Made by a program: the position numbers and the translations under genes. From Ceratodon purpureus (Eukaryota; Streptophyta; Bryopsida; Pseudoditrichales; Ditrichaceae): a stretch of 64,000 nucleotides of DNA. The notes under the pieces were generated by a model that worked only from the letters and a program-made list of their open reading frames with translations, was not told where the DNA came from and ran no database searches. Below, piece by piece: positions 15,001 through 64,000 of this stretch. The stretch spans positions 19,044,270 through 19,108,269 of the forward strand of contig CM026426.1 of the NCBI GenBank assembly GCA_014871385.1, read 5' to 3'. Each line of letters begins with the position of its first letter. Position 1 is the first letter of the stretch.

Positions 15001-16099
15001 TCCACTCCATGCTATTGATTTAATTTTATTCCGTTCATCTCGCAAACCAATTGCATCGAGCCCCTTCCTAACCGTTCTTTATAATTTTAATTATATGTTA
15101 GAGCATTGTAGGATCTGTATGTACAATGAAATATATAGATTATTTTTTGAAACTCTAATCCAACTGTCTTCCACACCATGCTATTCATTTAATTTTATTC
15201 CTTTTATCTCTTCCACTCCATGCTATTGATTGGTTTTATTCCGTTCATCTCCCAAACCAATTGCATCGAGCCCCTTCCTAACGATTCTTTATAATTTTAA
15301 TTATATGTTAGAGCATTGTAGGATCTGTATGTTAAATGAAGTATATAGATTATTTTTTTGAAACTCTAATCCAATTGTCTTCCTCACCATGCTATTCATT
15401 TAATTTTATTGCTTTTATCTCTTCCACTCCATGCTATTATTTTAATTTTATTCCCTTCATCTCCCAAACCAATTGCATCGAGCCCCTTCCTAACCGTTCT
15501 TTATAATTTTAATTATATGTTAGAGCATTGTAGGATCCGTATGTAAAATGAAATATATAGATTATTTTTTTGAAACTCTAATCCAACTGTCTTCCACACC
15601 ATGCTATTCAATGAATTTTAGTCCTTTTATCTCTTCCACTCCTGGCTATTAATTTGGTTTTATTCCGTTCATCTCCCAAACCAATTGCATCGAGCCCCTT
15701 CCTAACGATTCTTTATAATTTTAATTATATGTTAGAGCATTGTAGGATCCGTATGTACAATGAAATATATAGATTATTTTTTTGAAACTCTAATCCAACT
15801 GTCTTCCACACCATGCTATTCATTTAATTTTATTCCTTTTATCTCTTCCACTCCATGCTATTGATTTGGTTTTATTCCGTTCATCTCCCAAACCAATTGC
15901 ATCGAGCCCCTTCCTAACGATTCTTTATAATTTTAATTATATGTTAGAGCATTGTAGGATCTGTATGTAAAATGAAATATATAGATTATTTTTTTGAAAC
16001 TCTAATCCAATTGTCTTCCTCACCATGCTATTCATTTAATTTTATTCCTTTTATCTCTTCCACTCCATGCTATTATTTTAATTTTATTCCCTTCATCTC
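1..16099. repeat. Tandem satellite array, 210-212 bp monomer, about 76 copies
   Basis: The same AT-rich monomer repeats head to tail from the first base of the window. The marker TTTTATTCCG recurs at 1, 213, 423, 635 and 847 and, with small changes, down to 16082, which gives about 76 monomers averaging 211.6 bp. Two length classes exist, 212 bp and 210 bp; the shorter one has a shorter T-run after TAGATTA and a TATTCTTCC variant. Diagnostic variants recur at fixed distances, so the array grew by block duplication: 209 and 2747 (2538 bp, 12 monomers), 5495 and 9305 (3810 bp, 18), 14341 and 15611 (1270 bp, 6), 7321 and 8381 (1060 bp, 5). Short open frames inside are by-products of the repeat and are not genes. 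The left end lies outside the window. A centromeric or heterochromatic role is possible but not shown; I see no CENP-B-like box. Confidence 0.97.
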
Positions 16100-16485
16100 G
16101 TCCATTGTTTTATCTTTTTTAGTTTTCCACATCCTTTCTTATATTAATGTACTATTTCTTTTGTGGTCAACATTATATTATTCATCGTGCATTAGATCAT
16201 TATTCCGTTATGGCATAATTCAGTTTCTAATCATGATGAGATTTATTCATATTGATAACTTCTTTCATCCCATGTTATTCATCTCTTTTTATCCCGAGTC
16301 TCTTATTATAGTCATGATTGTTTTTTTATAATTTGATATCTCATCTACAAATTATTCAAATGAGTATTCCTTATTTTAATATCTCTTTGTAATTTTTTAT
16401 TTATTATTTTATTTCATTTCTTTGTATTATTGTCTTCCAACCTTCTTCAATGCTACTCCTAACAAAAATAAGAGATTTTTTTAAG
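16100..16485. other. AT-rich unique junction sequence
   Basis: The satellite stops inside a monomer just after TTCCCTTCATCTC and is followed by about 385 bp of AT-rich single-copy sequence. No gene, terminal inverted repeat or tRNA-like box is seen here. Confidence 0.6.
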
Positions 16486-16669
16486 GTCTCGCGCCCACCC
16501 CTGGACCCGCTCGCGCCCCCCCCATACCCGCTCGCGCACCCCCCCCTCAACCCGCTCGCGGCCCCCCCCCCGAACCCGCACTCGCACCCCCCCGAACCCG
16601 CACTCGCCCCCCCCCTTATCCCACGTGCGCCCCCTCCTCGATCTCGCTCGCGCCCCTCCAACCCGCTCG

Positions 16670-16700
<31 letters not shown>
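16486..16700. repeat. C-rich CCCGCTCGCGCCCC array upstream of the first RING gene
   Basis: This is a degenerate tandem array of ACCCGCTCGCGCCCC-like units about 17-22 bp long, ending in an uninterrupted run of 30 C (16670-16699). Open frames across it on either strand are low-complexity shadows. It directly precedes a TATA box, and related arrays precede three other plus-strand genes in the window. Confidence 0.9.
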
Positions 16701-16702
16701 AC

Positions 16703-16710
16703 TATATAAG
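16703..16710 (+). promoter_or_regulatory. TATA box of the first RING gene
   Basis: TATATAAG begins 3 bp after the end of the C-rich array and lies about 330 bp before the ATG at 17043. The leader that follows carries the TTATTGCTGAGTACTTGGGT motif also found, diverged, behind the promoters at 53989 and 55007. Confidence 0.65.
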
Positions 16711-16763
16711 TGAAGGGGGCGCCCTCCCCCCCCCACTTTTTAAGCTCCACCTTGGCACTCAGG

Positions 16764-16923
16764 CCTTGAACTACCTCGCGGTGGCTTATTGCTGAGTACT
16801 TGGGTGGGGTCTACAACATTTTGACAACGCCACGTACCTCGTTCAACCGTATTTTGTACGCTCATCCGGGAATTTGGGCCCTAAACTACCTCACGGTGGC
16901 TTATTGCTGAATACTTGGGTGGG
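16764..16923 (+). repeat. Leader motif duplicated in the 5' region
   Basis: A 45-bp leader segment occurs twice 115 bp apart, at 16764-16809 and 16879-16923. Both copies read CTACCTCRCGGTGGCTTATT followed by GCTGARTACTTGGGTGGG. The copies look like an internal duplication of the leader. ACTTGG|GTGGGG could serve as a splice donor, and TTTACCAG just before the start codon could be the matching acceptor of an untranslated-region intron; this is inference. Confidence 0.7.
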
Positions 16924-17042
16924 CCACAAAGTATAGTTAGAATACCATAATCAACCACGTAGGAAAATTGTAAAATCAATTGGGGGAAGTTTTGAGGAGT
17001 TGGTGTGTTTTTTAACACACAAAACTTTACCAGTACACCACG

Positions 17043-19415
17043 ATGGAGGGAAACCCAGCTCCGGCGGCGGAAACGCTACTCACCAAGGCGGAAAAGAAAA
17101 AAATCAGAGATCGTGAACGGAAGCGTGGTGGTAAGAAGATGAAGAAGCGACTTCATGTGTTGAACAACCCGACAAAGTTGGCATTTAGAGGTTGGCAAGA
17201 TGAGCCGGAACCGTGGAAATATTCCACATGCAAGGAATTCATTGAGTGGTGCCACATCACAAAAATATTTCCACACGATCGGCACAGAAAGCACAGGATC
17301 TCAGACAAGGCTAACCTCTATTGTTGCTTGAATGCGGAGTTTGTTGAACGTTCTATACAAGTTTACCAGCATCTATACAAGCAATCTTGTGTCGAACGCA
17401 ATGAAGTACCATTGTTCATTTGCAGAATGGTGTATGCTGAGGTGGTGCTTCACAAAGTGGTGGATTGGTCCACCATCAAATCCACGACGAGTGTTAGGGC
17501 GCCGACAGAGCGTGACATTCCCAAACAAAGGAAATACCCAGATGGTGGCGTGGGGAAAAGAATGAAGGTAAAAACACAAGTGCCGGATCCTGCTACAGCA
17601 GAGTCTGAACCAGATTCTGATTCCGATGGTCGTCGTGGAGAAAGAGTGCCACGTAGAATTGCAGCACCAGCAAATATGGCTCTAGAGCCTCCAATGAACC
17701 ATCCAGCGGACGTCGTAGAACCTCATGACGATGCGAACATCATCTTCGTGGAAAACGATCCGAATACGGCAGCTAATTTGGAGGTGGTCGGAACTGAACC
17801 TACGATGGTTCTTGGCATGCCGGTTGTAGTTAGAAATGACCAGTCTAACCAAATCGAGGAGGTCGGGGAGTTGCAATTACAGGTTATAGAAAAGGATGGC
17901 TTCATTGCAGAGTTACAAGAGACCCTCCGAAAACTACGATTGGAATCAGCAGCAAAAGATGCAGTAATATCAGATTTGCGCAATCAATTGCAAGAACGAG
18001 AAAGACCTCAGTCTTCTCAAGCCAATGATATACCTGTAGTTCAGGATCCAATGTTGGTGGATGAATCTTACATCAACAACACAGTTGATGTTGCAACGGC
18101 CGGTGTGTTGGAGAATATTTCCACACCAGCAAAACGACGACGAGCTGGAGTGATATTGCCTCCACCAGCCCCATACCCGCGACCCTATGTGGACATTGAT
18201 GGACCATTAAGTCAAGATTCCTTGTCATTTCCACCCAATGCTCTAACGGGAGAAGTGGAGACATTGATGAGAGCCAATAATGAATTGCGGCTCCTTGTTT
18301 CTAAGTTTGCTAAAGCATACTACGAGTGGAAAGTGGCAACCATTCTCAGCATTGATCGCGGTCGCCAAATTGCATTAGAGTTCAAGAAGATCGACGAATC
18401 GTACTTGCAACACAACAGACGAAGGGATTTTGGCCTCACTTCATGGATTAACGCAGATGATATGTATCCAGATGACATGCCAATGCAAGAATCGAATCCT
18501 AAACTCATAGATTGGGCCCAGTTGAATTTCGATGTGGAGAACGCAACTTCGTGCCATGATCTTCAAATGAAGGAAGGAGTTAATAGCAGAAAGCTTTGGC
18601 CAAATCCTCAACCGTGGGTGATGGATGGGTCAAAACAATGTATGGTGTGTCTAAACACATTTGGTCCTGAGGGTGGATGGGCAGTTGGATCATGTACCCA
18701 CATGTTCCATCCAATGTGTTTAATTAACATTTTTTTGGTAAGGAGATTTTGCCCGATGTGCAAATCTCCGTTCCATGAACGCTTGTACGAGGTTTTTGGA
18801 CTCACTCCATACATGCCACCAAGCCATGAGAGAAATCCCGAAAACACACCAGGTGAAGACTACTGCAACATGTGGGGGGAAGATTTGATTTGGAGTTGGC
18901 GGGCCCAGACTCACTCGGTCTTTAAGAGCAATGTAAGTGACGAGTTGGGGTGGGAGAATAACCCCAATCAGATTGTGAGGGTGGCAAAGAAGATAATTGG
19001 ATCAAAGAAGGAGGACCAAGGGAAACGAAATTTCTTCTATCAGACTTTGAATGGATACTGGGATGCGAAGAATAAGAAGTTCCAACTTGGTAATCACCCA
19101 AAAGGCCTCATATGGAACAAGGAGGGGGAATTGGTTACAGACCTTGAAGGTCAATTCATGACTTTGACCGCCCAAGATGCAGTCCAAATGTCTATTTCAG
19201 AGTGGAAGTTAATTTTCAAACATGAAGCTGTTGACTTTCTTCTGGAGGAACACTCTCCACAGACATTGCGTACATTGAGAGAATTGAGGAACTCGCAAAT
19301 TTTGCGTTCTCTCAGTGAAAGTGATGGCCCATTCCGGCGGACACGGAAGAGAGCCTTGACGCTGGACAATGGAGCGGGACCAAGTGGCACAGCGGGAGTA
19401 GATGCAGATGAATAG
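17043..19415 (+). CDS. RING-H2 finger protein of a mobile-element-linked family (790 aa)
   Basis: This is one uninterrupted exon of 790 codons that starts at the first ATG after the TATA box and leader. Residues 40-145 form a conserved N-terminal domain (RLHVLNN, LAFRGW, EFIEWCH, NEVPLFICRMVYAEVVLH) that I do not recognise. An acidic linker and a coiled coil (about 272-320) follow. A RING-H2 finger lies at 533-573: C533-x2-C536, a C-x-H-x2-H-x2-C centre and C570-x2-C573. RING-H2 proteins are usually E3 ubiquitin ligases; that role is inferred. A second conserved block with NFFYQTLNGYWD lies at about 660-700, before a basic, Ser-rich tail. The gene at 55294 is a clear paralogue along its whole length. 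C-rich arrays flank the gene on both sides, and a hAT-type terminal sequence lies 0.7 kb downstream. TGTAA about 50 bp after the stop is a possible green-algal polyadenylation signal. The partner or substrate is unknown. Confidence 0.85.
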   Translation: MEGNPAPAAETLLTKAEKKKIRDRERKRGGKKMKKRLHVLNNPTKLAFRGWQDEPEPWKYSTCKEFIEWCHITKIFPHDRHRKHRISDKANLYCCLNAEFVERSIQVYQHLYKQSCVERNEVPLFICRMVYAEVVLHKVVDWSTIKSTTSVRAPTERDIPKQRKYPDGGVGKRMKVKTQVPDPATAESEPDSDSDGRRGERVPRRIAAPANMALEPPMNHPADVVEPHDDANIIFVENDPNTAANLEVVGTEPTMVLGMPVVVRNDQSNQIEEVGELQLQVIEKDGFIAELQETLRKLRLESAAKDAVISDLRNQLQERERPQSSQANDIPVVQDPMLVDESYINNTVDVATAGVLENISTPAKRRRAGVILPPPAPYPRPYVDIDGPLSQDSLSFPPNALTGEVETLMRANNELRLLVSKFAKAYYEWKVATILSIDRGRQIALEFKKIDESYLQHNRRRDFGLTSWINADDMYPDDMPMQESNPKLIDWAQLNFDVENATSCHDLQMKEGVNSRKLWPNPQPWVMDGSKQCMVCLNTFGPEGGWAVGSCTHMFHPMCLINIFLVRRFCPMCKSPFHERLYEVFGLTPYMPPSHERNPENTPGEDYCNMWGEDLIWSWRAQTHSVFKSNVSDELGWENNPNQIVRVAKKIIGSKKEDQGKRNFFYQTLNGYWDAKNKKFQLGNHPKGLIWNKEGELVTDLEGQFMTLTAQDAVQMSISEWKLIFKHEAVDFLLEEHSPQTLRTLRELRNSQILRSLSESDGPFRRTRKRALTLDNGAGPSGTAGVDADE

Positions 19416-19685
19416 GAATAGTTACAACTTAGTACTAAGTGACTAGTTTTCATATACTACAGTTTTTGTAATGTTTTGGTTTGAATTGGTAATGGAATGA
19501 TTTTACTTTCATAAATGTATACAACATTGCAAAGTCCATGTATTTTGGCTCACGAGTATCTCATTTTTTCTATGCTGAATTTACACATTTGTCATTGCGC
19601 TTAGCCCCAATATATTATTCTGATGGAAATGTTAGGCTTTTTTGCATTGTCAAAACTTTACTATATCTACAAAATGAGCCGCACG
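19416..19685. other. 3' flank of the RING gene
   Basis: AT-rich sequence with no further gene. It holds the likely 3' untranslated region, including TTTTTGTAATG near 19464. Confidence 0.5.
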
Positions 19686-19912
19686 AAAAACCCGCTCGCG
19701 CCCCCCCCTGAACCCGCTCGCGCCCCCCTTGAACCCGCTCGCGCCCATTCCCTCTGAACCTGCTCGCGCCCCCCCTGAACCCGCTCGCGGCCCCCCCCCT
19801 GAACCCGCTCGCGCCCCCCCCCTGAACCCGCTCGCGCCCCCCCCTGAACCCGCTCGCGCCCCCCCTGAACCCGCTCGCGCCCCCCCTGTACCCGCTCTCG
19901 CCCCCCCTACAC
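19686..19912. repeat. C-rich AACCCGCTCGCGCCCC array downstream of the RING gene
   Basis: About a dozen units of 17-20 bp stand in the same orientation as the upstream array. The 17043-19415 gene is therefore bracketed by two direct arrays of the same unit. Confidence 0.9.
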
Positions 19913-20029
19913 ATGCTGGCACCCCTTTTGCATATGTGGCATTCCCCGTCATCATTCGTTGTCCATGTCATCAATATGTTTCCCCTATAGGTAAGTTGTA
20001 AAAAAAAAAAACTAACTTAGTAATTTTCC

Positions 20030-20136
20030 TCCTCCCCTCAATGTCCGATTATGTCCGGGGACCGACCGGTCCGTCCGTCCGTCCCTCCGTCTATGTCCGG
20101 AAATTTTGCCCATGTCCGTCCGATAAGACAACCCTG
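20030..20136 (-). mobile_element. Right terminal sequence of a hAT-type element
   Basis: Read on the minus strand from 20136, the sequence begins CAGGGTTGTCTTATCGGACG and continues with GGACGGAC repeats. It matches the plus-strand sequence starting at 53606 (CAAAGTTGTCATAATGGACG) and the ends of the element at 30838-35181. This looks like the right end of the unit holding the first RING gene. No matching left end is seen before 16486, so that side is lost, degenerate or replaced by satellite. The 8 bp outside the end are CTCATGGT. Confidence 0.6.
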
Positions 20137-31601: not shown

Positions 31602-32261
31602 ACGGGAATTTGGAGATTTCGGGAAGTTGAGGGGTCGGCCGTCGGCGGGGACGGGGGGCCGACCCCGGTGACGGCCGCGGGGACGGCCCCCGCCCGGTTG
31701 GAGGCGGGGTCTCGCATGGCCTTCCTTCTTCTCTTGCGTTTTCTCTAGAGACGGCCTCCCCTCCCCTCCTCCCCTCGTCCAACCTTGACAAAACAATTCT
31801 ATTTCTAGATACTCTAAAAACAAAATCAATACCGAATTAGAAATTTGAGACATATCCCTGAAATCATGGAAAATGTCCAAAAGATTTTGTAATCGGGATT
31901 GTGGGATCCGCCTTGATGTTGGGGTATACTTTAGAAGGAGATATTTATGCCGTTCAATTGTTGGTGCTCTACTATGGTTTGCAAACATAATCTCAATGTT
32001 TAGAAGGAAGAATACATTTGTTTTGGAAATGAAATTATGGCCCATGGGCCTATAGACAAGGGAGGTATACGATGGGGGGTACAACTTAAAAGGTAATGAG
32101 AAGCTTATAAAAAATAATATTCTTTTATTTGAAGACATTATTTCGTTAGGTAATAAAGTTAAAGGAGAACTCGACATGGATTTCTCTTACATTAATATGA
32201 CAAGTTTGTATGTTTTTGTCTTTAATTTTATATGGCAAGACAAATCCTTTTTTCCATGAAA

Positions 32262-34539: not shown

Positions 34540-34654
34540 AACTTCTTCAAAACTTGTCCAAATTGGACTTATGAGATGTTTTTTGGCATCTACAGGAAAT
34601 GTAGATGCCAAAAAACACCTCATAAGCCCGATTTGGAGACGTTTTGCAGAAGTT
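34540..34654. repeat. Long hairpin in the right arm
   Basis: This is the mirror copy of the left-arm hairpin with loop GGAAA (34595-34599). One stem carries GTTTTGCAGAAGTT where the left arm has a perfect match. Confidence 0.85.
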
Positions 34655-34689
34655 ATGAAGATTTTAAGATTCGGGATTTTTTTAAAAAA

Positions 34690-35050
34690 CATTTGCGGCC
34701 GTCTCCGCGGCCGTCGCCGGGGACGGCCTCCCCTCCGCGGCGACGGCAATGGGCCGTTGCCGGGGACGGCCCCTCCACCGCGGCAACGGCCCCCCCCTCC
34801 GCGGCGACGGCAAGGGGCCGTCGCCGGGGACGGCCCCCCCCTCCGCGGCGACGGCAAGGGGCCGTCGCCGAGGACGGCCCCCTCCACCGCGGCGACGGCA
34901 AGGGGCCGTTGCCGGGGATGGCCACCCCCTCCGGGGCGACGGCAAGGGGCCGTCGCCGGGGACGGCCCCTTCCCGACGCGGCCAACGGCCCCCCCCCGCT
35001 CCGCGGCGACGGCCGCACCCTCCCCCGCAACCCCTCCCCCGCGTAGAAGG
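34690..35050. repeat. GC-rich GGCGACGGCAAGGGGCCGTCGCC array, right arm
   Basis: Units of about 50 bp, each containing GCGACGGCAAGGGGCCGT and itself partly palindromic, repeat about six times. The open frames across them are not genes. Confidence 0.85.
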
Positions 35051-35181
35051 TCTGGTTTCACCCCGGTGTGAAACCTATGCGGGTGATTTTTTTTTCTAAG
35101 TCACAGGACGTCCTCTGGCGCTGGCGGACGTCCGCGGACGTCCCCACGTCCCGAGCGTCCCGGACGACCGTGACAACCCTG

Positions 35182-52100: not shown

Positions 52101-52590
52101 TCATCCTCGGGTGTCTTCTTGCGGTAGGCAGTGGCTGCTTCATCGGAGGCCGCAGCGAGTTCCCGCTGTAGAAAGATAATTAAGCCTTAGGAAATTCCAT
52201 GAGTATTGAATAATAAGAAGCAAATAGAGAGAGGAGGTAGGACTTACTCGGTACAAAAATGCGATGAAAACTTTACTTGTCAAGGGAAACCAGGAGGGAT
52301 TAGGTGGCTTGTTCTTCAAACATGCGTCATACTCTTCAGGACTGAGGAGGTCTTTAAATTCCTCCAGCTTCATCATTCCGAAGGAGCGGATTCGAAATAG
52401 TTTTGCGGGGAGATTACTCTTCACGTGGTCATTCTCAGTCGACCTAAAAATAAACCAAAATACGTATGATGAATAATAGAGATGAGATAAAGTAACAAAT
52501 GGAAAAACAGGAAAAAAGAAACAAGTACTTACCAGTTGATGTCATGCATTGCGTGAAGAAGATTGCCAACATGGCCACGGGGGTCGTGTA
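49131..52590 (-). CDS. DNA N4/N6-methyltransferase-like protein, ten visible exons, 5' end missing
   Basis: Exons in order are 52590-52533, 52443-52248, 52165-51968, 51876-51661, 51566-51316, 51237-50565, 50477-50124, 50040-49769, 49681-49493 and about 49397-49131, with mostly consensus GT-AG junctions. The first six give an unrecognised alpha-helical, Trp-rich N-terminal region ending in a Ser/Pro-rich linker. Exon 7 has FDLIIVDVPE, at the place of catalytic motif IV (normally DPPY), so the active site looks altered. Exon 8 ends with KPGDIVFEWSAGTG and exon 9 begins ASLKACQAIRRHIIACEEDK, together matching SAM-binding motif I. The order IV then I is that of beta-class amino-methyltransferases. 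The protein ends SDCSMF before a TGA. An in-frame TAG lies in exon 7 at 50279-50277 (HYL-stop-FDGAL). The 5' exons are cut off by the segment starting near 52591. Whether it methylates DNA, RNA or nothing is unknown. Confidence 0.6.
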
Positions 52591-53605
52591 TGTGGGAAGA
52601 CGTTCCCACATGTTTCCGGAAGTAAGCATAAATTTCCGGCTAAACCGGAAATTATAGTGTTTCTAGAATACTAGCTAGATAGGAATATTAGAAATATGAT
52701 AGTTTTAGCTAATAAGACGGTTGGGAGAAACTAGAAGCCATAACCAGACATGGTGGCACAAGTCTTTGATATCGGCTAGCCAGACGGTTCCGGTCGGACT
52801 GCAAGTTTCCAGAATCCGGAAATCTGAAGTTCGGAAATCCGGAAATCTGGACTCCGGAAGTTTGGAAATCCGGAATCCAGAAACTGTTGGACGAATACCG
52901 GAACTCAAGAATAGTAGATGGGGCTACCTCCCACACAGACCGGAACCTCAAAGCCGGTAGGTAGATGTCCAAGATGCCAGAAGTCTGGCTCTTCTATAAT
53001 TCCGGATCAGGTAAGAAGTAGAAATAGGTAGTTAGAAATCTCCCGACTCTTAATAGCGACTAACGATGGGGCTCAATTGCACCCGGCTATTAACAGGGAG
53101 TTAGATATAGTGATTTGTTGTTGTTGAGATCCGGAAGTTTCAGATCCAGAATCCGGAAGTCTCAGATCTAGAAACCGGATCTCAGATCTAGAGACCAGAT
53201 CTCAGATCCAGATCTCAGATCCAGAATTCTAGGATCTAGTGGGCCACTAGGCTGCGAGAACTCCGGGTAGGAGATAGTACTTAAGCCAGAAGTTTTCCTA
53301 AGGCTTGCACCTTGTTTTTGTATTCCATTAGCTTGTGAAATTCAGAATATGTTTGGAGAAACTGTTGGAGTTTGAGCGAGGGACGGTTGCATAGCAGGTC
53401 CATTGTGGTTCCGGTTGGAAGTACCATTGTTGCCGGTAGGATTCCGAAAGTGTGTATTCCGGTTGAGTGAATCAGGAGAGCGCCCGGAGAGATTGGAAAG
53501 GTGTCAAGCGCCGAGTGTTGACGGTTTCCAACGTCCGGAAGGAGCCTGGTGACAGGGACAAAAGCCTGACTAGCCAACCGGAAACCGTCCGGAAGGGGTA
53601 ACAGT
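52591..53605. mobile_element. CCGGAA-rich insert, possible lone LTR
   Basis: The segment starts TGTGGGAAGACGTTCCCACA, is filled with TTCCGGA/CCGGAA and AGATCTCAGATC words, and ends ...GGGGTAACA just before the hAT-type end at 53606. TG...CA termini and a length near 1 kb would suit a lone LTR, but no clear target duplication is visible. Its composition resembles the fossil at 22851-27000. It separates the methyltransferase-like gene from its 5' exons. Confidence 0.35.
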
Positions 53606-53744
53606 CAAAGTTGTCATAATGGACGGACGGGCCAAAAAATTGTCGTGTAGTCACGTGACGAGCGTGACGGACGGTTATCAGACGGACGCTTATCGGACAG
53701 GCTCCCGACCGCGAGCAAAATTACTGTCCTCACAGTGTACTACT

Positions 53745-53985
53745 GTTTACCATGGGTGGCGCCCGTCGTCGTGTCCGCGCGCGTCTTTGCGCCTGTTCGC
53801 GCCGGTCCGCGCCGGTCATATGTGGTTGTTCGCGCCCGTCGTCAGTCTCGCGCGCGCGCGGTGATCGCGCCCGATTACCCTCGCCCGATCACGGTCGCGC
53901 GCGCCCGTAGCTTAGGAATAACGTGCTCGCGCCCGTACCAGCCTGCGCGCGCCCAACCTGCTCGCGTCCACACTGTCGGCCCCGT
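53745..53985. repeat. CGCGCCCG-type array before the coiled-coil gene
   Basis: Degenerate units containing GCGCCCGT, CGCGCGCG and CTCGCGCCCG run up to the TATA box. Open frames across it are not genes. Confidence 0.8.
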
Positions 53986-53988
53986 GAG

Positions 53989-53995
53989 TATAAAT
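53989..53995 (+). promoter_or_regulatory. TATA box of the coiled-coil gene
   Basis: GTGAGTATAAATTGCC is followed by ATTTTGCACCCCCCCA and the leader CTGATTGCTAAGTGCTACGG. The promoter at 55007 has the same order of elements. Confidence 0.7.
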
Positions 53996-54116
53996 TGCCA
54001 CCCTCCTCCACTAATTTTGCACCCCCCCACTTTGTGCATTTTGCCTTCAACAGCCCAAGGGTAGCTGATTGCTAAGTGCTACGGTGGGTTTCTCAACATT
54101 CGCTGTACCGTCCAAC

Positions 54117-54521
54117 ATGAATTCCAACGCCTGCAATTGCCAACAAATCAAGTCGATTATGAGTTTGACGAATGGTGCCACTCCACCGGGCACTGCACAG
54201 CGAACGGACACAGTTATTTGGTTAAAGCTGGAGCGACTCCGTCAACTGATTGAGTTCTTCGAGGATTGGATCTCTCGCCGTGACAAATTGGTGGCCTACG
54301 CAGAGAATGGACGCCCTCTGCCTCCAACCACTGAAGAGCAGTTGGCAACCCAAGCGACTGTCGAAGAACTTGACTGTGAGATTAGCGATCTCATCAAAGA
54401 ACTGAAGAAGAAGATGGCAATACTTTGTGTCCCCAATATTGTCTCTAGTGCTCAAACGAACCATTTTGAGACGCACTTGAAAGACCTAGAGGACCGGTAC
54501 CTAGAGTGCATGGCACTGTAA
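54117..54521 (+). CDS. Small coiled-coil protein (134 aa), unknown function
   Basis: The chosen start is the first ATG after the TATA box (MNSNACNCQQIK); the frame is open further up only through non-ATG codons within the leader. The protein is mostly helical, with a heptad-like stretch (VEELDCEISDLIKELKKKMA) and a Cys pair near the N-terminus. AAATAAATAAAG about 30 bp after the stop could be a polyadenylation signal. No domain is recognised. Its own promoter and its position between the hAT-type end and the RING gene suggest an accessory gene of the element. Confidence 0.6.
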   Translation: MNSNACNCQQIKSIMSLTNGATPPGTAQRTDTVIWLKLERLRQLIEFFEDWISRRDKLVAYAENGRPLPPTTEEQLATQATVEELDCEISDLIKELKKKMAILCVPNIVSSAQTNHFETHLKDLEDRYLECMAL

Positions 54522-54639
54522 TCAACATTACAATGAAGTGATACATTTTCAAAATAAATAAAGTATTTTTTTTTAACTCTGAATTTGCAAGTTCTCTTTG
54601 GTTACTCTGATTTTTAACAGTGTTCTAGTTTGTGGTGGC

Positions 54640-55005
54640 GCCCGTCCTGGTCCAGTGCTCGCGCCCGTCCATCCAGCGTTGGCGCCCGACGGTCGCGCCC
54701 GTGCAATTCGGATCGCGCCCAACTAATATCCGCGCGCCCGCATCGACGTCCGCGCGCGTGCCCCTTCGGTACCCGGACGACGCCCGCGCGCGCCCGACAA
54801 AGACCGGGTCGGTACCCGCTCGCGCGCGGTAAAACCCGCTCGCGCCCGTCATATACCCGCCACTGAACCGCTCGCGCCCGTTGATATCCGCGAGGGCGCG
54901 GAGGGATACACGGCCAAAACCCCGCCGTCGGTGCCCGCGCGCGCCCGTCGGGTTCCCGCTCGCGCTCGTAGCAGGTTGTTCGCGCCCGTTCCCTGGCGCC
55001 CGTGA
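54640..55005. repeat. CGCGCCCG-type array before the second RING gene
   Basis: About 365 bp of units such as CGCTCGCGCCCGT and CGCGCGCCCG. The long open frames on both strands come from the repeat. Confidence 0.8.
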
Positions 55006-55006
55006 G

Positions 55007-55014
55007 TATAAAAG
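55007..55014 (+). promoter_or_regulatory. TATA box of the second RING gene
   Basis: GTGAGTATAAAAGGGC is followed by ATTTTGCACTCCCCCC, CCTTCAACAGCCCCCGGGT and the leader ACTGATTGCGAGGTACTCAG, which ends at a donor-like AG|GTGGGT. Confidence 0.7.
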
Positions 55015-55293
55015 GGCGATTTCCCACCTCATTTTGCACTCCCCCCCCCCCCCTTTGAGAACCTTGCCTTCAACAGCCCCCGGGTAACTGATTGCGAGGT
55101 ACTCAGGTGGGTCCCAGCACTCTGACACGTGTCTTTGTTTTTGTTCTCCAGAACTCTATGGTGTCTGTGTATTACATTTGAGAATTTTGTAAATGTTTAT
55201 AATTTGTAAATGTGATTGAGGTTTTGGGGTAGTCGTAGGCTTTTAATTTTGCACTTTTGGAAGACTTCGAAGAACGATCTACCTCGAGCAGAT

Positions 55294-57849
55294 ATGGAAC
55301 GGCAAGAACCAAATCAGCCCACGGCGGCAAAGCAGAGGAAAAAGCAAAAGGATGCGGGACGGGCTAGGCATGGAAACCTCCAACATAAGAGGGTCCACGT
55401 CTTATTGAATCTAGCAAAGCTGGCATTCAGAGGGTGGGAAGCTACACCGCAACCGTGGACTCTACCAACGTGTGAACAATTCATTGAATGGTGCCACATT
55501 GGGAAGTTATCCCCGTTGCACCGTCATAAAAACAATCGTACTTCAAATAAGGCGAACATGAAATATTGCAAGAACCGTCAGTTCGGGAGGCGGTGGTTGG
55601 AGGTGTACCAGATCCTATACAACCAGGCGATGAACGATAGAAATGAGGTTCCGCTCTTTATTTGTAGAATGGTGTATGCCGAGGTAGTGCTTCATAGGCA
55701 GGTGGATTGGAGGACCATACGGTTGACTCCTAGCGTCCAACGGCGTCCACATGAGATGGCGATACCTACAGGGGTCCTAAGATTTCCAGGTGTGGACTGG
55801 GCATACTTGGATGATCCTGAGGATCAAGCGCCTGTTGAATGGAGTGACTCAGGGGAGGATAATGATTCTGATGGTACGGTAGACCGTCCCCCTCAGTCAC
55901 AAACAAGAGCAGCGACTAGTGCTAGAATCACACGGTTAAAAAAGAAGGATCCTGTGCTAGCTGCCTGTTTGTCGACGAGGAATCGTGCACCGCCTGCAAA
56001 TCCTACTCGACCGGGTATTCCTCATCAGGCTCCTCCAGCAATCGTCGGGGGCCCGAGCAATGTTGATGTTGCTCCTCCTATATTAGTTCCACAGATTGCG
56101 GGCCCGAGCAATGTTGATGTAGCTCCTCATGTACTGAATCCACAGATTGCGGGCCCGAGCAATGTAATGGAAGATGATGACACTGGGTTTGCAGATGAGT
56201 TGGAGGCTACAATAGCCGCCGCTGATGCCCAGGGCCCGCAAGGCGATGCATTGCAGAAGGAGCTGGAAGGAAAAAATGCAATAATTTCTGAGATGGAGAA
56301 GACGACCCAGAACTTGTACGAAGAAGCCGATAGGATGAATGAGATTATACGGAAGCAGAATGAAGAGATTTCGCAACTTCGATCTGCGAGGGCTCTGACT
56401 TACGTACCCGAGGCAAGCCAAGCTCCAATCCCTAGTAGCCGTGGAATGAACGAGGAAGACGTGAATGCCATCATTGAATCGGCCACGCACGGTCTCTTGG
56501 AAGATACCCCGGTCCGAGTTCCCCGTAAGCCAATCATTCCATTCGCGTCATCAAGTCAAGTGATGCACCCCCCCCAGCGGCAAATCATGTTCGTGGATTC
56601 TCAAGAGACGGAGGACTCTTTGGGATTTCAACAGCCATCGGTACCCACTGTCTCCGAATTGCAAGCTACCAACGGGATGCTCAGAAAGTATCTGATCGAG
56701 ATGAGCAGACAGTACTACCAATGGAAGATTGCATGCATCATGAACGTCGACCGTTTCAGACAGATCCACGATGAGTTCAAGAGGATTGACCGCGACTACC
56801 TCCAGCTTAACTCCAAGAGAGATTTCGGACTTACCTCGTGGGCAGATCCAGATGAAATGTTCCCTGACGACATACCAATGATTGGTAAAGCAATAGATTG
56901 GACGCAGTTGGAGTGGGAGTACAAGACCGCCATATCCAATGAGAAGATCCCTAAAAATACATGGCCAAGATTGCCGTGGCCCAATCCACAGAAGTATGTG
57001 TTGGATGGAACCGAGTGTCCAGTTTGTTGCAATCTATTTGGGCCAGAGGGGGCCTGGTCATTGGGATCTTGTCACTGCATGTATCATCTACAATGCTTGA
57101 TTTCCCATGCCTTGATACGTCGGCGGTGTGCAGTATGTAAGGCGCCCTTACACAAGCGTTTTTATGAGCAATTCGGCCTAGTGAATTGGATGCCACCGCA
57201 TTGGGAGCTAAATAAGGAAAATACTCCTGACTTTCCGGACAAGTGGGGTGAAGACTTGATTTGGAATTGGCTTATGGGAATGCACCAGTCCTATGTTAAA
57301 CAAATGAGCGATCAGTAAAGGTGGGACCAGAAACCTGCGGAGATTGTACGGATCTGCCACGAACTTATCAAGGGCGGGACGGAGGACGAACTCGAGGGAA
57401 GGAGGAATTTCTTCTACCAAGTGCTACATGGGCACTGGGATATTCAAACTCGTACATTCCAGTACGGCCCACATCCTCTTGGATTTAAGTGGAACTCCAA
57501 AGGGAACTTGGTTGCGGATCAGATCAAGGAGTTACACGACATGACTGCAGAGGATTTCCGGATCGCTGAGGAAGTACAAACCGCGGAATCTGAATGGGAT
57601 ATATTGTTCAAGACTCAAGCCGTGGATTTCCTATGTGCGGAACATACTCCGGATGTCGTAACAGTGCTCCGTCGGATGCGCAACAACAACTTCATGGAAG
57701 CAATGCTTGGAGGAGATGGCATAGCAAAGAGAACCCGTTCTGCCAAGCGGAAACTCATCGCCAACGCTGGGGCAGAAAGTAGTGCAGCAGGTACCTCTCG
57801 TGCTCGACACGATGAGGGTGGATCGAGTTCCTCTGCACCGGGCACGTGA
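55294..57849 (+). CDS. RING-finger protein paralogue, one in-frame TAA
   Basis: The ATG at 55294 (MERQEPNQPTAAK) lines up with the start of the paralogue at 17043; the frame is open upstream only without an ATG. All parts of the family are present: the N-terminal domain (LAFRGW, EFIEWCH-like, NEVPLFICRMVYAEVVLH), an acidic linker with three tandem AGPSNVDVAPP-like repeats, a coiled coil, the RING and the C-terminal NFFYQVLHGHWD block. In the RING (C575-x2-C578 to C612-x2-C615) the fourth ligand is Cys rather than His (GSCHCMYHLQC), so it is C4HC3-like and not RING-H2. A TAA at 57316-57318 interrupts the frame between the RING and the C-terminal block, and the same frame continues to a TGA at 57847-57849. 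Either the protein ends after 674 residues, or the stop is a recent mutation or is read through. Confidence 0.75.
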
Positions 57850-58255
57850 CGTTGTGGAGATCCATGAGTGAAGACCACATTCTGTAAAAAGATATCGGAA
57901 TATAAATACATGTAGATGGCATAGGGGTATGGATAGGTTTGGGATTACATTCACATGTTTAATTTTTGTTAAACTCAAACAATGGATGATAATTTGCTTT
58001 TGTAAATCATTGTCGTGATTCTCAAGACGCTTTTATTCTCCCTACATAATACATTGGCCTCCCTTTTTTTGATTGCCAATCATGTTATTCATTCCGCCCG
58101 TTGTCTCATCTCCTTCCATCGTATGATAAGTGTATAAATATCTTTGTTGCACACCAAAATGTTTAATATGGTCAGTGGATTTAAGTCACGGTAAGAGAAC
58201 TTAAGTTATTGTAAGTGTATTTAACTTATGGACTGAATTTTATGTTACGTGGATT
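57850..58255. other. 3' flank of the second RING gene
   Basis: AT-rich sequence without a gene. TGTAA occurs about 35 bp after the TGA and again near 57999. Confidence 0.4.
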
Positions 58256-58259
58256 TGAA

Positions 58260-58830
58260 CTCTGAACCCGCCCGCATGCTCGCGCGCGTTTGCGCGCGCC
58301 CGTAGTGTGCGTACCCGCGCGCGCGCAAACCTGCCCCCAGCGAGAGTAAACCCAGGATTACGCCCGTACGCGCGCGCGCGCGCGAACTGCTCGCGCTCGT
58401 TGCACCAACAGCGCGCCAACAAATTCTGAAATGTGGAACACCCGACGGTGTCTCCGTCGTTCCGCTTGCGCCCGACTTCGCACGCGCGCGAGCACAACAA
58501 CCCGAGTGAGGGACTAATTTCTCTCCCCAAACCCTCTTTTCCATTTGCACGCGCCCGCACCCGCGCGCGCGTCCTGATCGCGCCCGTCAAACCAACCGCG
58601 CGCGCACGGTCGCGTGATTCTGAAACTCTTCCTCCCCCCACAATGTCTCTCGCATTCCGCTCGCGCCCGATTTCGCGCGCGCCCGATTGCGCGCGCGCGA
58701 GCACTGCAACCATATCATGGAACTAATTTCTCCCCCCGAACTCCCTCGTTCCATTTGCACGCGCCCGCACGCGCTCGCGCCCATCAATGCGGGCGCCCGT
58801 TTTGCACGCGCCCGAGCACTCCAACAACAT
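58260..58830. repeat. CGCGCCCG-type array with a 210-bp duplication
   Basis: A segment with CCATTTGCACGCGCCCGCAC is found at 58541 and again at 58751, together with TTCCGCTYGCGCCCGAYTTCG. The array is therefore a diverged tandem pair. No TATA box and gene follow directly. Confidence 0.75.
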
Positions 58831-58849
58831 CACTCAAATAAATTTTATG

Positions 58850-59690
58850 ATTCTACCACTCTCCCATCCTATCCCCTTGTTTTTATTTAATATTCCCACA
58901 CTCTTTAATTTGTTTTTTTTTTTTTTTTTCCCCCCTTCTTTGAACACTACGCTTTTATTTAATTCCTTCTCTCATTTCGTCCGTTCATTTTTATAATATA
59001 CTAAAGCTAGTAAATCTTCAGGTCGACCCAGAGTCACCAGAAGATCCTCTAAGCGCTTGAGTTCAGCTGATGATTCGTCAATATCCATTGTTTTTTTTTT
59101 TTCCCCTCCTTTGAACACTACGCTTTTATTTAATTCCTTCTCTCATTTCGTCCGTTCATTTTTATAATTCCAGCTCTCCCCCATCCTCCCGCCTTATTTT
59201 TATTCAATACTCCTACGCTCTTTAATTTGTTTTTTAATTTTTTTCCTCCCTTCTTTGAACACTACGCTTTTATTTAATTCCTTCTCTCATTTCGTTTGTT
59301 CATTTTTATAATTCCACCTCTCCCGTATCCTCCCGCCTTATTTTTATTCAATACTCCTACGCTCTTTAATTTTTTATTTTTTTTTTTTTCCCCCTTCGTT
59401 GAACACTACGCTTTTATTTAATTCCTTCTCTGATTTCGTTTGTTCATTTTTATAATTCCACCTCTCCCCTATCCTCCCGCCTTATTTTTATTCAATACTC
59501 CTACGCTCTTTAATTTTTTATTTTTTTTTTCCCCCCTTCGTTGAACACTACGCTTCTATTTAATTCCTTCTCTCATTTTGTTTGTTCATTTTTATAATTC
59601 CACCTCTCCCCCATCCTCCCGCCTTATTTTTATTCAATACTCCTATGCTCTTTAATTTGTATTTTATTTTTTTCTTCATTTTATAAATTC
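58850..59690. repeat. T-rich tandem repeat, 142-144 bp unit, five to six copies
   Basis: GAACACTACGCTT recurs at 58942, 59113, 59257, 59401 and 59543. Each unit carries a long T-run with CCCCC, AATTCCTTCTCTCATTTCG and a CTCCCCCATCCTCCCGCC block. The first spacing is 171 bp because other sequence (about 58998-59090) interrupts it. Confidence 0.9.
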
Positions 59691-59837
59691 GAATGCCTAT
59701 TCGTTTACTTTATTTTTTATTTTTTCTTTTGGGTACTCCAATCTCCCATACTAATGTATGGTATTTCAGTGTAGTCCATTCTCTCCCTTAAGCTTTATTT
59801 TTTTTTTTTTTTGAACTTACGACTTTTAAACTTCATT

Positions 59838-60085
59838 GCGCGCGCCCTGTTGGATCGCGCACGTCCGAGCGCGCCTGCAGGCGCCCGCGCGATCGCGTCC
59901 GCAGTCGACCCATTGAACCTGCCCACGCGCGCGCGCGCACACGCGCGACCGCGCCCGCAAGTACGCGCGCGCGCCTGCTTTTTTGACGCACGCGCGCGGC
60001 CTCCCCGACCTGCGCTCGCCCTGCTCGCGCCCACCCGTCCGCGCGCGCCTGCTCGCGCCCCACGCCGCCTACGCGCGCGCTCGGG
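59838..60085. repeat. CGCGCGCCCG-type array
   Basis: Low-complexity CG-alternating sequence. Open frames on both strands are shadows. A 330-bp stretch without a gene separates it from the next array. Confidence 0.8.
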
Positions 60086-60424
60086 GTTTCAACTGGATTA
60101 ACGCAGTAACTAGTAAAATTTATCCCGTATTTTAAGTTAACACTGCCTGAGGTTAGCTTAAAACGACTTACCTTCCAGTGGGAGGGCAGAAACATGAAGG
60201 GCGAGATGACAGCCTGCTCCAGTTCTTAGACATGTGTGAATGGGGTGGGTAGTCCTCTTGCTTCTCTCATGTTTCTCAATCTTTTCACTTAAATGGGGTT
60301 CCTTTTTATGTAGATGTTCACGTGTTTGTAGTTCACACACTTTAATTTTTTTTGAAATTTATTCATTTTTCCCTATCATTGTTATTTCTTCTCAGTGAAT
60401 TGAGCTGGCCAAATCGATCTTGCC

Positions 60425-60735
60425 CGTTTGATCGCGCCCGCACCCGACCGCCCGTGCGCGCCCGCGCCTGCATTCACCCGCCGCTCTCCGCCCGTGCGCG
60501 CCCGCGCTTGCATTCGCCCGCCGCTCTCCGCCCGCGCCCGCCCGCTTCGCGCTCCAGCCCTCGCGCCCGCATGTGCCCGCCCCCGCCCGTCTTCCCCCGT
60601 GCGCGCTATCCGCCACGCGGCCTGCAATCGCGCGCACCCACCTGCGCCCGCCCGTTCGCGTCGGAGCGCGCCCAATCTTCTGGCGCGCGCGCGCCCGTTC
60701 GGTCGGGCCCGTCCGGACAGTACTCGCCCGGTCGA
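60425..60735. repeat. CGCGCCCG-type array before the hAT transposase
   Basis: Includes a 42-bp tandem duplication at about 60450 and 60492 (CCCGTGCGCGCCCGCG then TGCATTC). It ends just before the TATA box. Confidence 0.8.
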
Positions 60736-60744
60736 GGGCGGCAG

Positions 60745-60752
60745 TATATAAA
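60745..60752 (+). promoter_or_regulatory. TATA box of the hAT transposase gene
   Basis: TATATAAATTGCCCCC follows the array directly. The leader has GGGGAGACACTTGG then TTTGGGTGGG, a weaker relative of the leaders at 16764, 54062 and 55084. The ATG is 250 bp downstream, so a leader intron is possible. Confidence 0.6.
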
Positions 60753-60995
60753 TTGCCCCCTTGATTTGACATCCACCTTACCTCCTTGCGTGCTTCATGT
60801 CCTGGGTCTCCTTGAGGGCTCCTTGCTTGAAACTGTTAGCTTGGGGAGACACTTGGTTTGGGTGGGGGGAATGTAAAAATTCTTCTCTCCATAAATCAAT
60901 GTGTCAAGCACGTTTCAGACACACTAAGTTATTCAGATAATAATCTTTTGGTACTACTGGTCCTATTAGTCCTGATACTTTCCTAATCATTCACT

Positions 60996-63809
60996 ATGGA
61001 ACCGGTTGAAGCGGTTGAACCGGTTGAAGTGGTTGCTCCGGCTAGAGCCATTCCGAGACTCGGTACGAAAGAGTGGGCACCATGGTTTACGGTCAAGCTC
61101 CTGGAAGGGTCACTGTCACATAAGGTAGCCCAATGTGTGTATTGCAGGACCAAGTTTTCGTACGTGAAGCATAGGTGCTTTCAGCATTATGGTTGGAACC
61201 AGTCCAATCTCTCGAGGGTTTGCCAAAAGGCACCTACCGTAGTGAAGAGGAAGTTTCAGTTTTACGCTGGAAAGATTCCCGGCCCTTTGACACAGGAGGA
61301 GATGGATGGTATCAGGACAACGTTCCCCGCGTCAGTTCAACGTGGGTGTTCCAGTGCTTCCACACACGGCACTCTGTACGGTGGATCCGAACCCTCGTAT
61401 AATGATACCGAAGAGGACCGAAATGTCTCCAGTGTTGCACCTAGTAGGGCGGGTTCGAATACCACTAGGAGCTTGCGGCAACAGGACATGAGTGAAGCAC
61501 TCCAGATCGCCAAGCGGAAGGAGCTGGACATGTTGTGGTCATCCTTCTTTTACGAAGCCAACGTCGCATTCAACGTGGCCAAGCACCCAGCATTTATTAA
61601 GGCGGTGAGCACAACCGCGGCTGCCGGATTTAACTACGGTCCTCCTTCCTATGACGCGATGCGAACAACGCACATCAAGGAAAAATAGAAGTTGATCAAG
61701 GCAAAGATTGATGAACGTACGAAAACCTCGACCGAGTTATACGGGGCTACCATATGCTCCGATGGTTGGGATAATGTGAATCGCCGACCGTTGATGAATG
61801 TCATGCTAGTATGTCCGGCAGGCGATGTATTTCTTGGGTCTGTTGATACGACTGGCGAGAAGAAGTCAATGGGATATATTGCCGGGGAGATGAAGAAATA
61901 TATTCGAGAAATTGGCCCTCAAAATGTTGTCCAGATTTGCACGGACAATGCAGCCAACATGCTTGGCGCCATGGATAATATCCTAGAGGAGTTTCCTCAC
62001 ATGTACAAGCAGGGCTGTTGTGTCCATATTCTAGATCTTCTTATGGAGGACTGGGGCAAGGAAGTCTTTGTGAAGGATTTGGTCGCCAAGGCTAAACACG
62101 TGTGTCATTACATTCGGAGACATCATGTTCCCATGGCCCTTTTCCGCAAATTTGAACCGAAGTTATCCTTGGTGGTTCCCGCTCAAACCAGATTCGCTTG
62201 TAACTATCTGATGATAGCGCCCCTTATGGAGGTTAAATTTGCTTTGGAACAAGTGGTCATGGCACCGGAGTGGTTCGATTATGTCGACGGTTTATTCAAC
62301 CAAACCGAGGGGGTGCGTAATCATGCACGCACAAGCCTAGTACGTGAAACAGTTCGTGATGATGGGTTCTCGCATCAGTGTGACAACTTCACGCACCTAG
62401 TGAAACCAGCCCTGGTAGCTCTCAGAACCTTCGATGGAAGCCAGCCGGCAATGGGCAAGGCATGGATTACAATGAGCAACCTAAAGGATCACGTGTACAG
62501 TCTCCGAGGATCCCCTTGCTTTTTCCCACCTGTCATGGCAACAAGGATGGAGATGCGGTTCGACCGTAGATGGGACATGATGCATACCGATCTTCATTAT
62601 GCCGCGGCGCTCTTGAACCCTTGGGTTAGAACGCATAAGGGCTTACAAGTCATAGGAGAAGCGAAGGCGGCTCTCAATCGGGTGTTTCGTCAGGTGGGTG
62701 GCCAAATGGGAATTCCATTTGCCGTTCTTATGAAAGAGATGATCAAGTTCGACGAGGGACGTGGCCCTTAGAGCCCCGAAGTGACCATCGATATCAGAGG
62801 TTTGAATCTGGAACCCCATCAATGGTGGCAGAGGATTGGAGGGGGGCCCTTGGCAGTCATTGCAAAGCGCATTTTATCTCAGGTCTGCTCCGCCTCATCG
62901 TGTGAACGGAATTGGAGCATGTATTCGTTTGTCCACAACAAGGTACGCAACCGCCTGGGGTTGGAGAAGTCTCACGCCTTGGTGTACATTTATACAAATA
63001 GCAGACTCCTCCGCGAACGCCCAAAGCCCAACCCCCTCAGATGGTACGAGAACAATGCATGGTCAGAGGAGTCAGATCTAGAGAGAGATCCAAGCGAAGA
63101 GGAAGGAGATGACGACAATCATTACATACCAGTTGACCACGCAGGCAGTGGGGATGATGATGTCTGGGGACATGATAACGTCGACGTTAACACGAATGGG
63201 CAAAACGACGGTAATGGCAACGGGCGCGGTGACGCTAACCGCAACAATCCGCGTGACCGCAACAACCACGATGATAACGGTGATGCGTACGACTTCAACA
63301 ATGAACCAGAATATAACCAGGGAAACCCGGACATGAACATCTATGGAGACGAATTACCCACACTCCCGGTATTTGATGAAGCGGCTAATGCAGAAGGAAG
63401 AGACGCACGTGACGAAAGAGATGCTATTCCAGTCCAAATCAATCCCAAGAACAATGACGGGGTTGCAGATGATTCATCCAGCGAGGACCATCTTGGCAAC
63501 GATATCCATGCTGGCGATGATGACGAGGACAGTGACGAAGGGGGTGATGGAAGTCATGGACGGGCTGTAGATGGACCTCATTGGACCGGCCTCGTTAGTG
63601 GGGAGGGCAACTGGGGAACCGTTTTTCACAAGGCGACTCAAGCTTGCTTCAAGAGATTCCTCCTGCTCACGAGAGAAGGACCGTGCACGCAATCCCCGCA
63701 CAGACTGTGCCTCCATCGCAACCCACAAGTACGGGGGGTATCGAACCAGATACAATCGTGGATGGAGGCCTCGCTCGGAGGCCCACAAGTTCAATGGGCG
63801 CAAAAATAG
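60996..63809 (+). CDS. hAT transposase with BED-type finger, DUF659 and hAT C-terminal domain
   Basis: The frame starts at ATG 60996 and runs 938 codons with two in-frame TAG codons (61686-61688 and 62769-62771). A BED-type zinc finger holds C47-x2-C50 and later His/Cys residues (CVYCRTKFSYVKHRCFQH). DUF659 starts near residue 240 (YGATICSDGWDNVNRRPLMN) and includes CTDNAANMLG. These give the first two catalytic Asp (SDGW, CTDNA). The hAT C-terminal dimerisation region lies at about 610-672 with the catalytic Glu in SSCERNWSMYSFVHNK and LVYIYTNSRLL at its end. A long Asp/Asn/Gly-rich tail follows, unusual for hAT. Near 63600 a +2 frame becomes the more protein-like one (EPDTIVDGGLARRPTSSMGA, to the window end), so a frame change or intron is likely. 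All domains are intact apart from the TAGs, which sit at glutamine-compatible places (KEK-stop-KL, GRGP-stop-SP). Confidence 0.8.
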
Positions 63810-64000
63810 CTCGACTCCTTAGATCATCAGCAGCGGCGAGGCCTCCACTCAATCGAGCTGGTGGTAGTCGGCGTGGTGCCTCCACCGCCAAGCTAGTCCC
63901 CGTGGCGCCAGCTATAGACGACGCCGTACAGAATGTGGCCCAACGTGGTGCGAAGAAGTCCACAGACAAGGTTGTTAGGAAACCACCATCACAAGAACCC

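What the first reader, a model, noticed from the sequence alone, without database searches (positions are those of the whole stretch)
53606..64000. Candidate multi-gene hAT element carrying a RING-finger gene and a coiled-coil gene
The sequence shows a terminal motif CARRGTTGTC plus GGACGGAC repeats at 53606 (plus) and at 20136 (minus). Each lies beside a member of the same RING family, and the first is followed on the same strand by a coiled-coil gene, a RING gene and a hAT transposase. hAT elements normally encode only a transposase. An element family that carries its own RING protein, possibly to act on host ubiquitin pathways, would be new to me. That the genes share one element is inference.
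Basis: partly seen in the sequence, partly recalled or inferred. Interest (0 to 1): 0.75.

Follow-up and report, generated by a model that had tools for sequence, protein, structure and literature searches.

The report
Multi-gene hAT transposon with RING, kinase
A large jumping gene in what looks like a moss genome carries, besides the enzyme that moves it, its own RING-finger protein and its own protein kinase, and both are shared by two distantly related families of the element, which suggests that they help it to persist in its host.

Summary
53606 is the left end of a 13,855-bp hAT-type element; its right end lies 3,460 bp beyond the window with the predicted GTAACAGT duplication, and a nearby copy of the target repeat lacks the insertion. 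The RING gene at 17043 belongs to a second family, B, with another gene order. Of 20 copies examined, 18 had both ends: 16 with perfect 8-bp duplications, 2 with 7/8. B has about 350 of each end genome-wide. RING, kinase and hAT are 44-53% identical between families. Both carry CGCGCCC arrays (46 in the window, 3.1 expected) resembling the target arrays of VANC anti-silencing proteins. RING and kinase most likely serve the element; counter-silencing is my preferred, untested mechanism. Against: RING shows no significant selection within family B, and no copy read in full has every gene open.

The parts
53598..53605 (.). Left target-site duplication GTAACAGT of element A1; the right one is at extended coordinates 67461-67468 (L009:5461-5468)
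   Evidence: an uninterrupted copy of the target repeat with the same GTAACAGT lies at extended coordinate 69516
53606..64000 (+). Element A1, 13,855 bp in all, cut by the window end; it continues to extended coordinate 67460
53606..53628 (+). Left terminal inverted repeat CAAAGTTGTCATAATGGACGGAC; the right end reads CATGGTTGTCATAATGGACCGAC on the minus strand
   Evidence: other A copies begin CAGGGTTGTCATAATGGACGG
54117..54521 (+). Coiled-coil gene, 134 aa (P0002); found in family A, not in B1 or B2
   Evidence: no Pfam match
55294..57849 (+). RING gene of A1, interrupted by stop; RING domain at 57016-57138
60996..64000 (+). hAT transposase of A1 with DUF659 and hAT dimerisation region, interrupted by stops; its C-terminal part runs on to about extended coordinate 64441
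16100..20136 (+). RING-side part of a family B copy; the end at 20136 reads CAGGGTTGTCTTATCGGACGGACATGGGC on the minus strand
   Evidence: the far end of this copy was not found
17043..19415 (+). RING gene of family B, 790 aa, open (P0001); RING domain at 18639-18761
1..16099 (.). Array of a 212-bp repeat lying between RING and kinase of the same B copy (kinase at C6:19017422-19018999, left of the window)
53831..60696 (+). Blocks of the CGCGCCC motif between the genes of A1 (a B set lies at 16490-19882)
   Evidence: 46 in the window, 3.1 expected; none in the 33 kb between the elements

Best explanation
Shown: the window holds one full-length though decayed member of a family of large hAT-superfamily DNA transposons (A: coiled-coil, RING, hAT, kinase, all in one direction) and part of a member of a second family (B: RING(-), kinase(+), hAT(+)). 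RING protein, kinase and transposase are resident genes of both families and homologous between them. Inferred: the transposase cuts and pastes the element, in cis or in trans, at its CA..GTTGT ends with GGAC repeats, as other hAT transposases do, while RING and kinase are accessory proteins that serve the element's own life cycle. Mechanism that I prefer (about 0.4, untested): a counter-silencing or self-activation system in which an element protein binds the CTCGCGCCC arrays between the genes, and RING (as an E3 ligase) and kinase act there on host silencing factors or on the element's own transcription, in the manner of VANC in VANDAL elements. The confidence given is for the structural claim plus 'accessory genes that serve the element'.
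For: Both ends, 8-bp duplication and empty target copy for A1. Matched ends in 18 of 20 copies examined: A 8 of 8 (7 perfect, 1 at 7/8), B 10 of 12 (9 perfect, 1 at 7/8). Linkage far above rotated positions: RING-kinase 30 of 57 listed, 28 of them within 3.1 kb (rotation mean 0.42, most 3); coiled coil-kinase 54 of 83 at 9-15 kb (mean 0.4, most 4); left and right B ends 53 of 69 on C1-C5 (mean 1.1, most 7). Homology of all three genes between families with position 3 far more diverged than 1 and 2. Constraint within families on hAT of B and kinase of A. Rows without stops: RING 36 of 57, kinase 72 of 82, hAT 55 of 67. Intact kinase motifs in both families and all eight zinc ligands in both. 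Shared CGCGCCC arrays.
Against: RING of B as a whole (0.89 of the neutral ratio, P=0.17), coiled coil of A (0.97) and kinase of B (1.00, two copies) show no significant constraint within families. None of the six copies read (A1-A4, B1, B2) has every gene open. RING scores just below Pfam's cut-off (25.7 against 27.3). No expression, binding or activity data exist here; the motif arrays could be a by-product of tandem repeats. No other genome could be searched for the triplet.
Confidence: 0.8

Rival explanations
1. RING and kinase regulate the transposase rather than the host: the kinase phosphorylates it and the RING protein controls its turnover, tuning timing and copy number.
For: The three genes keep company in both families and have diverged to a similar depth.
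Against: Does not explain the CGCGCCC arrays beside every gene; no direct evidence either way.
Confidence: 0.3
2. RING and kinase are captured host genes carried as passive cargo, as in Pack-type elements.
For: Weak or absent selection within families on RING of B and kinase of B; gene capture is common in plant elements (PMC13317346, PMC2528002, passages).
Against: Both genes are shared at full length by two families in different order and orientation, with a codon pattern of long-term constraint; many rows are free of stops.
Confidence: 0.12
3. The cargo serves the host: the genes are kept because the plant uses them.
For: Open frames in many copies.
Against: Hundreds of dispersed ends and many decayed copies; stops in 13 of 20 listed RING copies on C6 against 8 of 37 elsewhere. 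This looks like element dynamics (inference).
Confidence: 0.05
4. The genes belong to separate elements that happen to lie side by side or nested.
For: The window is rich in insertions; three CAGGGTTGT-type ends lie in it.
Against: One duplication brackets all four genes of A1, and the same contents recur in other bracketed copies.
Confidence: 0.02

Closest known systems
hAT7 elements with a TET/JBP dioxygenase gene in rust fungi (Kojima 2025, PMC12730594; abstract, passages and first part of the Discussion seen)
   Same: hAT transposase plus an accessory gene that is kept, probably against silencing according to the author
   Different: 7-bp duplications, fungi, a dioxygenase; no RING or protein-kinase gene is named in the passages seen
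IS3EU elements with an alpha-kinase gene (same paper, passages)
   Same: A DNA transposon with a kinase gene beside the transposase
   Different: Other superfamily, 6-bp duplications; alpha-kinase, whereas the gene here matches the ordinary protein kinase family
VANDAL elements with VANC anti-silencing proteins in Arabidopsis (PMC5735166, passages)
   Same: Multi-gene element; short motif arrayed in one orientation in non-coding parts, evolving by tandem repeats
   Different: VANDAL is placed among Mutator-like elements (recalled); no VANC-like protein was recognised here; binding and demethylation are not shown here
KAONASHI-MULE and CACTA elements with a ULP1 protease domain (PMC2528002, PMC13317346, passages)
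   Same: Plant DNA transposons carrying a gene of a ubiquitin-like pathway
   Different: A protease, not a RING protein; other superfamilies; no kinase named in the passages seen
Lanisha (Maumus, McDaniel and Carey, Repbase Reports 2020; seen only as a citation and a description in PMC12730594)
   Same: Proposed by authors of the Ceratodon purpureus genome work, so perhaps the same host (inference)
   Different: Described as similar to EnSpm, in a group with 2-5 bp duplications

Membership tests
hAT superfamily | 8-bp target-site duplication (usual length, PMC12730594 passage) | tested here: met
   16 of 20 copies perfect, 2 at 7/8, 2 without a second end found
hAT superfamily | hAT-type transposase domains | tested here: met
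   DUF659 E=3e-31 and Dimer_Tnp_hAT E=3.8e-5, above its cut-off; DUF659 in B E=1.2e-30
hAT superfamily | Short terminal inverted repeats | tested here: met
   A1 ends agree over 23 bp with few mismatches; B ends agree over CAGGGTTGT
hAT superfamily | Cut-and-paste activity and catalytic residues | not testable with these tools
   No activity data; residues were not assigned against a solved hAT transposase
RING-type E3 ubiquitin ligase | Eight zinc ligands in cross-brace order | tested here: met
   C3H2C3 in B, C4HC3 in four A copies (names of the patterns recalled); best solved match RNF24 E=6.7e-7
RING-type E3 ubiquitin ligase | Curated Pfam score | tested here: inconclusive
   zf-RING_2 25.7 bits, cut-off 27.3
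RING-type E3 ubiquitin ligase | E2 binding and ligase activity | not testable with these tools
Protein kinase superfamily | Pfam Pkinase above cut-off | tested here: met
   B kinase 33.1 bits, cut-off 31.7; the fragment of the broken A1 copy scores 24.5
Protein kinase superfamily | Glycine loop, HxDxxxxN, DxG and APE motifs | tested here: met
   Present in A and B
VANDAL / VANC anti-silencing system | Dense, co-oriented short motifs in non-coding parts | tested here: met
   CGCGCCC 46 against 3.1 expected, 44 of 46 on one strand of the window; map
VANDAL / VANC anti-silencing system | VANDAL-type element with a VANC protein | tested here: not met
   The transposase is hAT-type; none of the proteins scanned matched a VANC model in Pfam or NCBIfam
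Lanisha superfamily | EnSpm-like transposase and 2-5 bp duplications | tested here: not met
   hAT-type transposase and 8-bp duplications

The most novel reading that the evidence does not exclude
A lineage of giant hAT elements has kept, since before families A and B split, a self-contained counter-defence module: an E3 ligase and a kinase that work together with element-specific CTCGCGCCC landing arrays between the genes, so that the element protects or activates its own chromatin through ubiquitination and phosphorylation.
Probability: 0.35. Interest if true: 0.82.

Novelty: new variant of a known kind. Interest (0 to 1): 0.64.

Why it matters
Accessory genes of plant DNA transposons are mostly unexplained; VANC is the case for which a mechanism has been worked out in the papers seen. 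Two families that share the same RING gene, kinase gene and transposase, with some 350 copies of each end in one of them and at least two apparently stop-free copies, would make it directly testable whether a transposon uses ubiquitination and phosphorylation to resist silencing. If the host is the moss Ceratodon purpureus, its large sex chromosome also offers a comparison of decaying with intact copies.

Tried and rejected
Lanisha, which I recalled as a Ceratodon element, was considered and rejected: EnSpm-like, in a group with short duplications. Enrichment of family A on C6, suggested by 32 of 40 listed left ends, was dropped as a claim: other A queries give 78 of 150 coiled-coil and 28 of 83 kinase rows on C6, so the first figure may only reflect likeness to the query, itself a C6 copy. 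Within-family selection on RING was sought and not found for the whole protein (the plain dN/dS of 0.57 takes no account of mutation bias). The far end of the B copy in the window was sought in L070 and not found. NCBIfam gave nothing useful. In one search the row 'RING_A(window)' was read one base out of frame and is void; the zinc ligands of A come from the three-frame scans in the same call.

Papers: PMC12730594 (outline, abstract, passages, part 1 of 2 of section 24), PMC5735166, PMC8000587, PMC13317346 and PMC2528002 (passages only). Ten searches: no title or start of abstract in the listings described a hAT element with RING and kinase genes. I did not open most listed papers, the library is partial, the Ceratodon genome paper is not held and Repbase could not be searched.
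Full report
Where it is. The window is G000:C6:19044270-19108269 of a 362,488,568-base genome in 151 contigs; C6 is 110.5 Mb. A review passage gives Ceratodon purpureus as a 360 Mb genome whose U and V are each over 100 Mb and about 30% of it (PMC8000587); C6 is 30.5% of this genome. I therefore take the host to be that moss and C6 to be a sex chromosome. This is inference; no taxonomic test was run.

The observation. CARRGTTGTC is present three times in the window against 0.26 expected. The flanks, joined, align at 1599 identical of 1647 columns to a second copy of the same host repeat about 2 kb further right, and that copy has no insertion. This is an empty site in place.

Gene content of A1. 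Coiled-coil ORF 54117-54521; RING gene from 55294; hAT transposase from 60996 with DUF659 and the hAT dimerisation region; kinase at extended coordinates 65309-66856. This copy is decayed: stops interrupt RING, hAT and kinase. Three other A copies were read: A2 (C6:8.858 Mb, 13,675 bp), A3 (C6:49.33 Mb, 12,554 bp) and A4 (C5:2.69 Mb, with both extreme ends cut off by my request). All have the four genes in the same order. The coiled coil is open in all four, the kinase in A2 and A4 only; RING and hAT are split in every one. In the list of A kinases 20 of 83 rows, on many chromosomes, share one score (1140.4 bits) and have no stops, which suggests a recent burst (inference).

Family B. The RING protein of 17043-19415 (P0001) has 57 scored copies at 93-100% identity on 12 contigs (a capped list). 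Two were read with their surroundings: B1 (C1:5262100-5272862, 10,763 bp, duplication GTCGCAGT) and B2 (C7, 11,898 bp, AATGAGAT), both RING(-), kinase(+), hAT(+), and 93-97% identical in the aligned pieces. RING is open in both; the B2 kinase and both hAT genes are split between frames. The end at 20136 is the RING-side end of this family. Ten further B copies from the RING list were examined: eight had both ends, seven with perfect duplications and one with 7/8; for C8:10.9 and C13:7.9 Mb the far end was not in the DNA fetched. With B1 and B2 that makes 10 of 12. For A, 8 of 8 copies (the window copy and seven chosen because both ends had been listed) have both ends, seven perfect and one 7/8.

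Census. At up to two mismatches there are 344 left and 350 right B ends; the reversed patterns give none. On C1-C5, for which the listed exact matches appear complete, 53 of 69 left ends face a right end within 45 kb; 35 of the 53 span 9.5-15.5 kb and 10 are under 6 kb, hence probably internally deleted; two left ends on C4 share one right end. Rotating the positions gives a mean of 1.1 and at most 7. Gene linkage agrees: RING-kinase 30 of 57, 28 of them within 3.1 kb; coiled coil-kinase 54 of 83; kinase-hAT 32 of 67, without a rotation control. The lists are capped by score, so these are lower bounds. Of ten B copies for which all three genes were listed, three have no stop in any matched stretch; one of these is B1, whose hAT is nevertheless split, and the other two (C6:20.84 Mb and C9:3.25 Mb) show a hAT frame of 1109 residues. 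Those two were not read, and the frame column alone is not proof, since rows with stops show the same length.

Constraint. Between A and B the three shared genes are homologous: by tblastn kinase 44-45%, hAT N-part 51% in A1 and A2, RING 36-39% over the length in A1 and A3; in codon alignments 46, 53 and 44%. Codon positions one and two agree at 0.57-0.70 and position three at 0.34-0.36, where shuffled codons give 0.25; aligning on the protein favours the first two positions somewhat, so the sharing of full-length proteins is the stronger point. All three have diverged to a similar depth, which fits one ancestral three-gene element, although two families cannot prove it. Within families the picture is weaker. 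Against a null that keeps base, change and CpG context, hAT N-part of B (0.14, P<0.001, two copies), kinase of A (0.63, P=0.004) and hAT of A (0.77, P=0.023, frame uncertain) are constrained; RING of B is not as a whole (0.89, P=0.17), only its RING domain (0.38, P=0.049, 13 changes, the best of three segments tested); coiled coil of A (0.97) and kinase of B (1.00, two copies) are not. Copies drift after insertion, so this is partly expected, but it does not help my case.

What the proteins are. B RING has C3H2C3 ligands; the four A copies have C4HC3. The best solved match is RNF24 (E=6.7e-7), while Pfam's zf-RING_2 stays just below its cut-off. The kinase passes Pfam's cut-off in B and keeps the glycine loop, HxDxxxxN, DxG and APE motifs in both families; its solved matches are weak (best E=0.0064). 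Basic clusters in B RING and B kinase would suit the nucleus; the A kinase has none by the rule used. The coiled-coil protein has no useful match.

Motif arrays. CGCGCCC occurs 46 times in the window against 3.1 expected, 44 times on the plus strand. All lie inside the two elements; the 33 kb between them have none. In B1 the blocks run with the genes: minus-strand on both sides of RING, plus-strand before and after hAT; in A1 they are mainly plus-strand except a minus-strand block before the kinase. The commonest forms share the core CTCGCGCCC in both families, while blastn with masking found just one short non-coding match (36 bp, before hAT) between A1 and B1. Arabidopsis VANC proteins bind short motifs arrayed in one orientation in non-coding parts of VANDAL elements, evolving by tandem repeat formation (PMC5735166, passages). 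That likeness is the basis of my preferred mechanism. It is analogy, not proof; the arrays here are themselves partly 20-23-bp tandem repeats, which could spread without function.

Verdict. The structural claim is secure. That RING and kinase serve the element is probable. How they do so is open: counter-silencing through array-bound proteins about 0.4, control of the transposase about 0.3. Cargo in DNA transposons is known (TET/JBP in hAT7, alpha-kinase in IS3EU, ULP1 in MULE and CACTA elements), so this is a new variant of a known kind; a hAT lineage with a conserved RING-kinase pair did not appear in the searches named in Tried and rejected.

Noticed in passing
30838-35181: A third insertion with CAGGGTTGT-type ends and a perfect duplication TATTCTGC, 4,344 bp, with an internal 616-bp inverted repeat at 97.6% identity and no convincing match to RING, kinase, hAT or coiled coil: a non-autonomous relative.
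   Followed up: partly
1-16099, with L011 and L071: The 212-bp tandem array lies between RING and kinase of one B copy, 42.3 kb apart here against 0.6-3.1 kb in 28 other copies; B2 has 4.2 units. A satellite expanded inside a transposon, about 41 kb if continuous; 11.8 kb of it were not seen.
   Followed up: partly
G000 contig C6 against the others: Listed B RING copies have stops in 13 of 20 cases on C6 against 8 of 37 elsewhere (P=0.0018), as if copies decayed but stayed on this chromosome.
   Followed up: partly
about 54000, 55010, 60745 in the window; L009 about 3125: TATA-like boxes with partly similar leaders lie 128-286 bp before coiled coil, RING and hAT of A1; a CATAAAA before the kinase was seen by eye.
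   Followed up: no
L086+L087 (copy A4) and L036 (copy A2): RING of family A is split between two frames near a run of C that the window copy reads through; a real frameshift, a frameshifting site and an assembly error in a homopolymer are all possible.
   Followed up: no
52590-53605 and L009 5461-8120: The target of A1 is a host repeat rich in CCGGAA motifs, present as a second copy of over 1.6 kb beside the insertion; possibly the long terminal repeats of a retrotransposon (reading).
   Followed up: no
35689-37799 minus: Two adjoining ORFs match DUF7869 (E=2.3e-18 and 2.7e-4), perhaps another transposon-derived gene.
   Followed up: no
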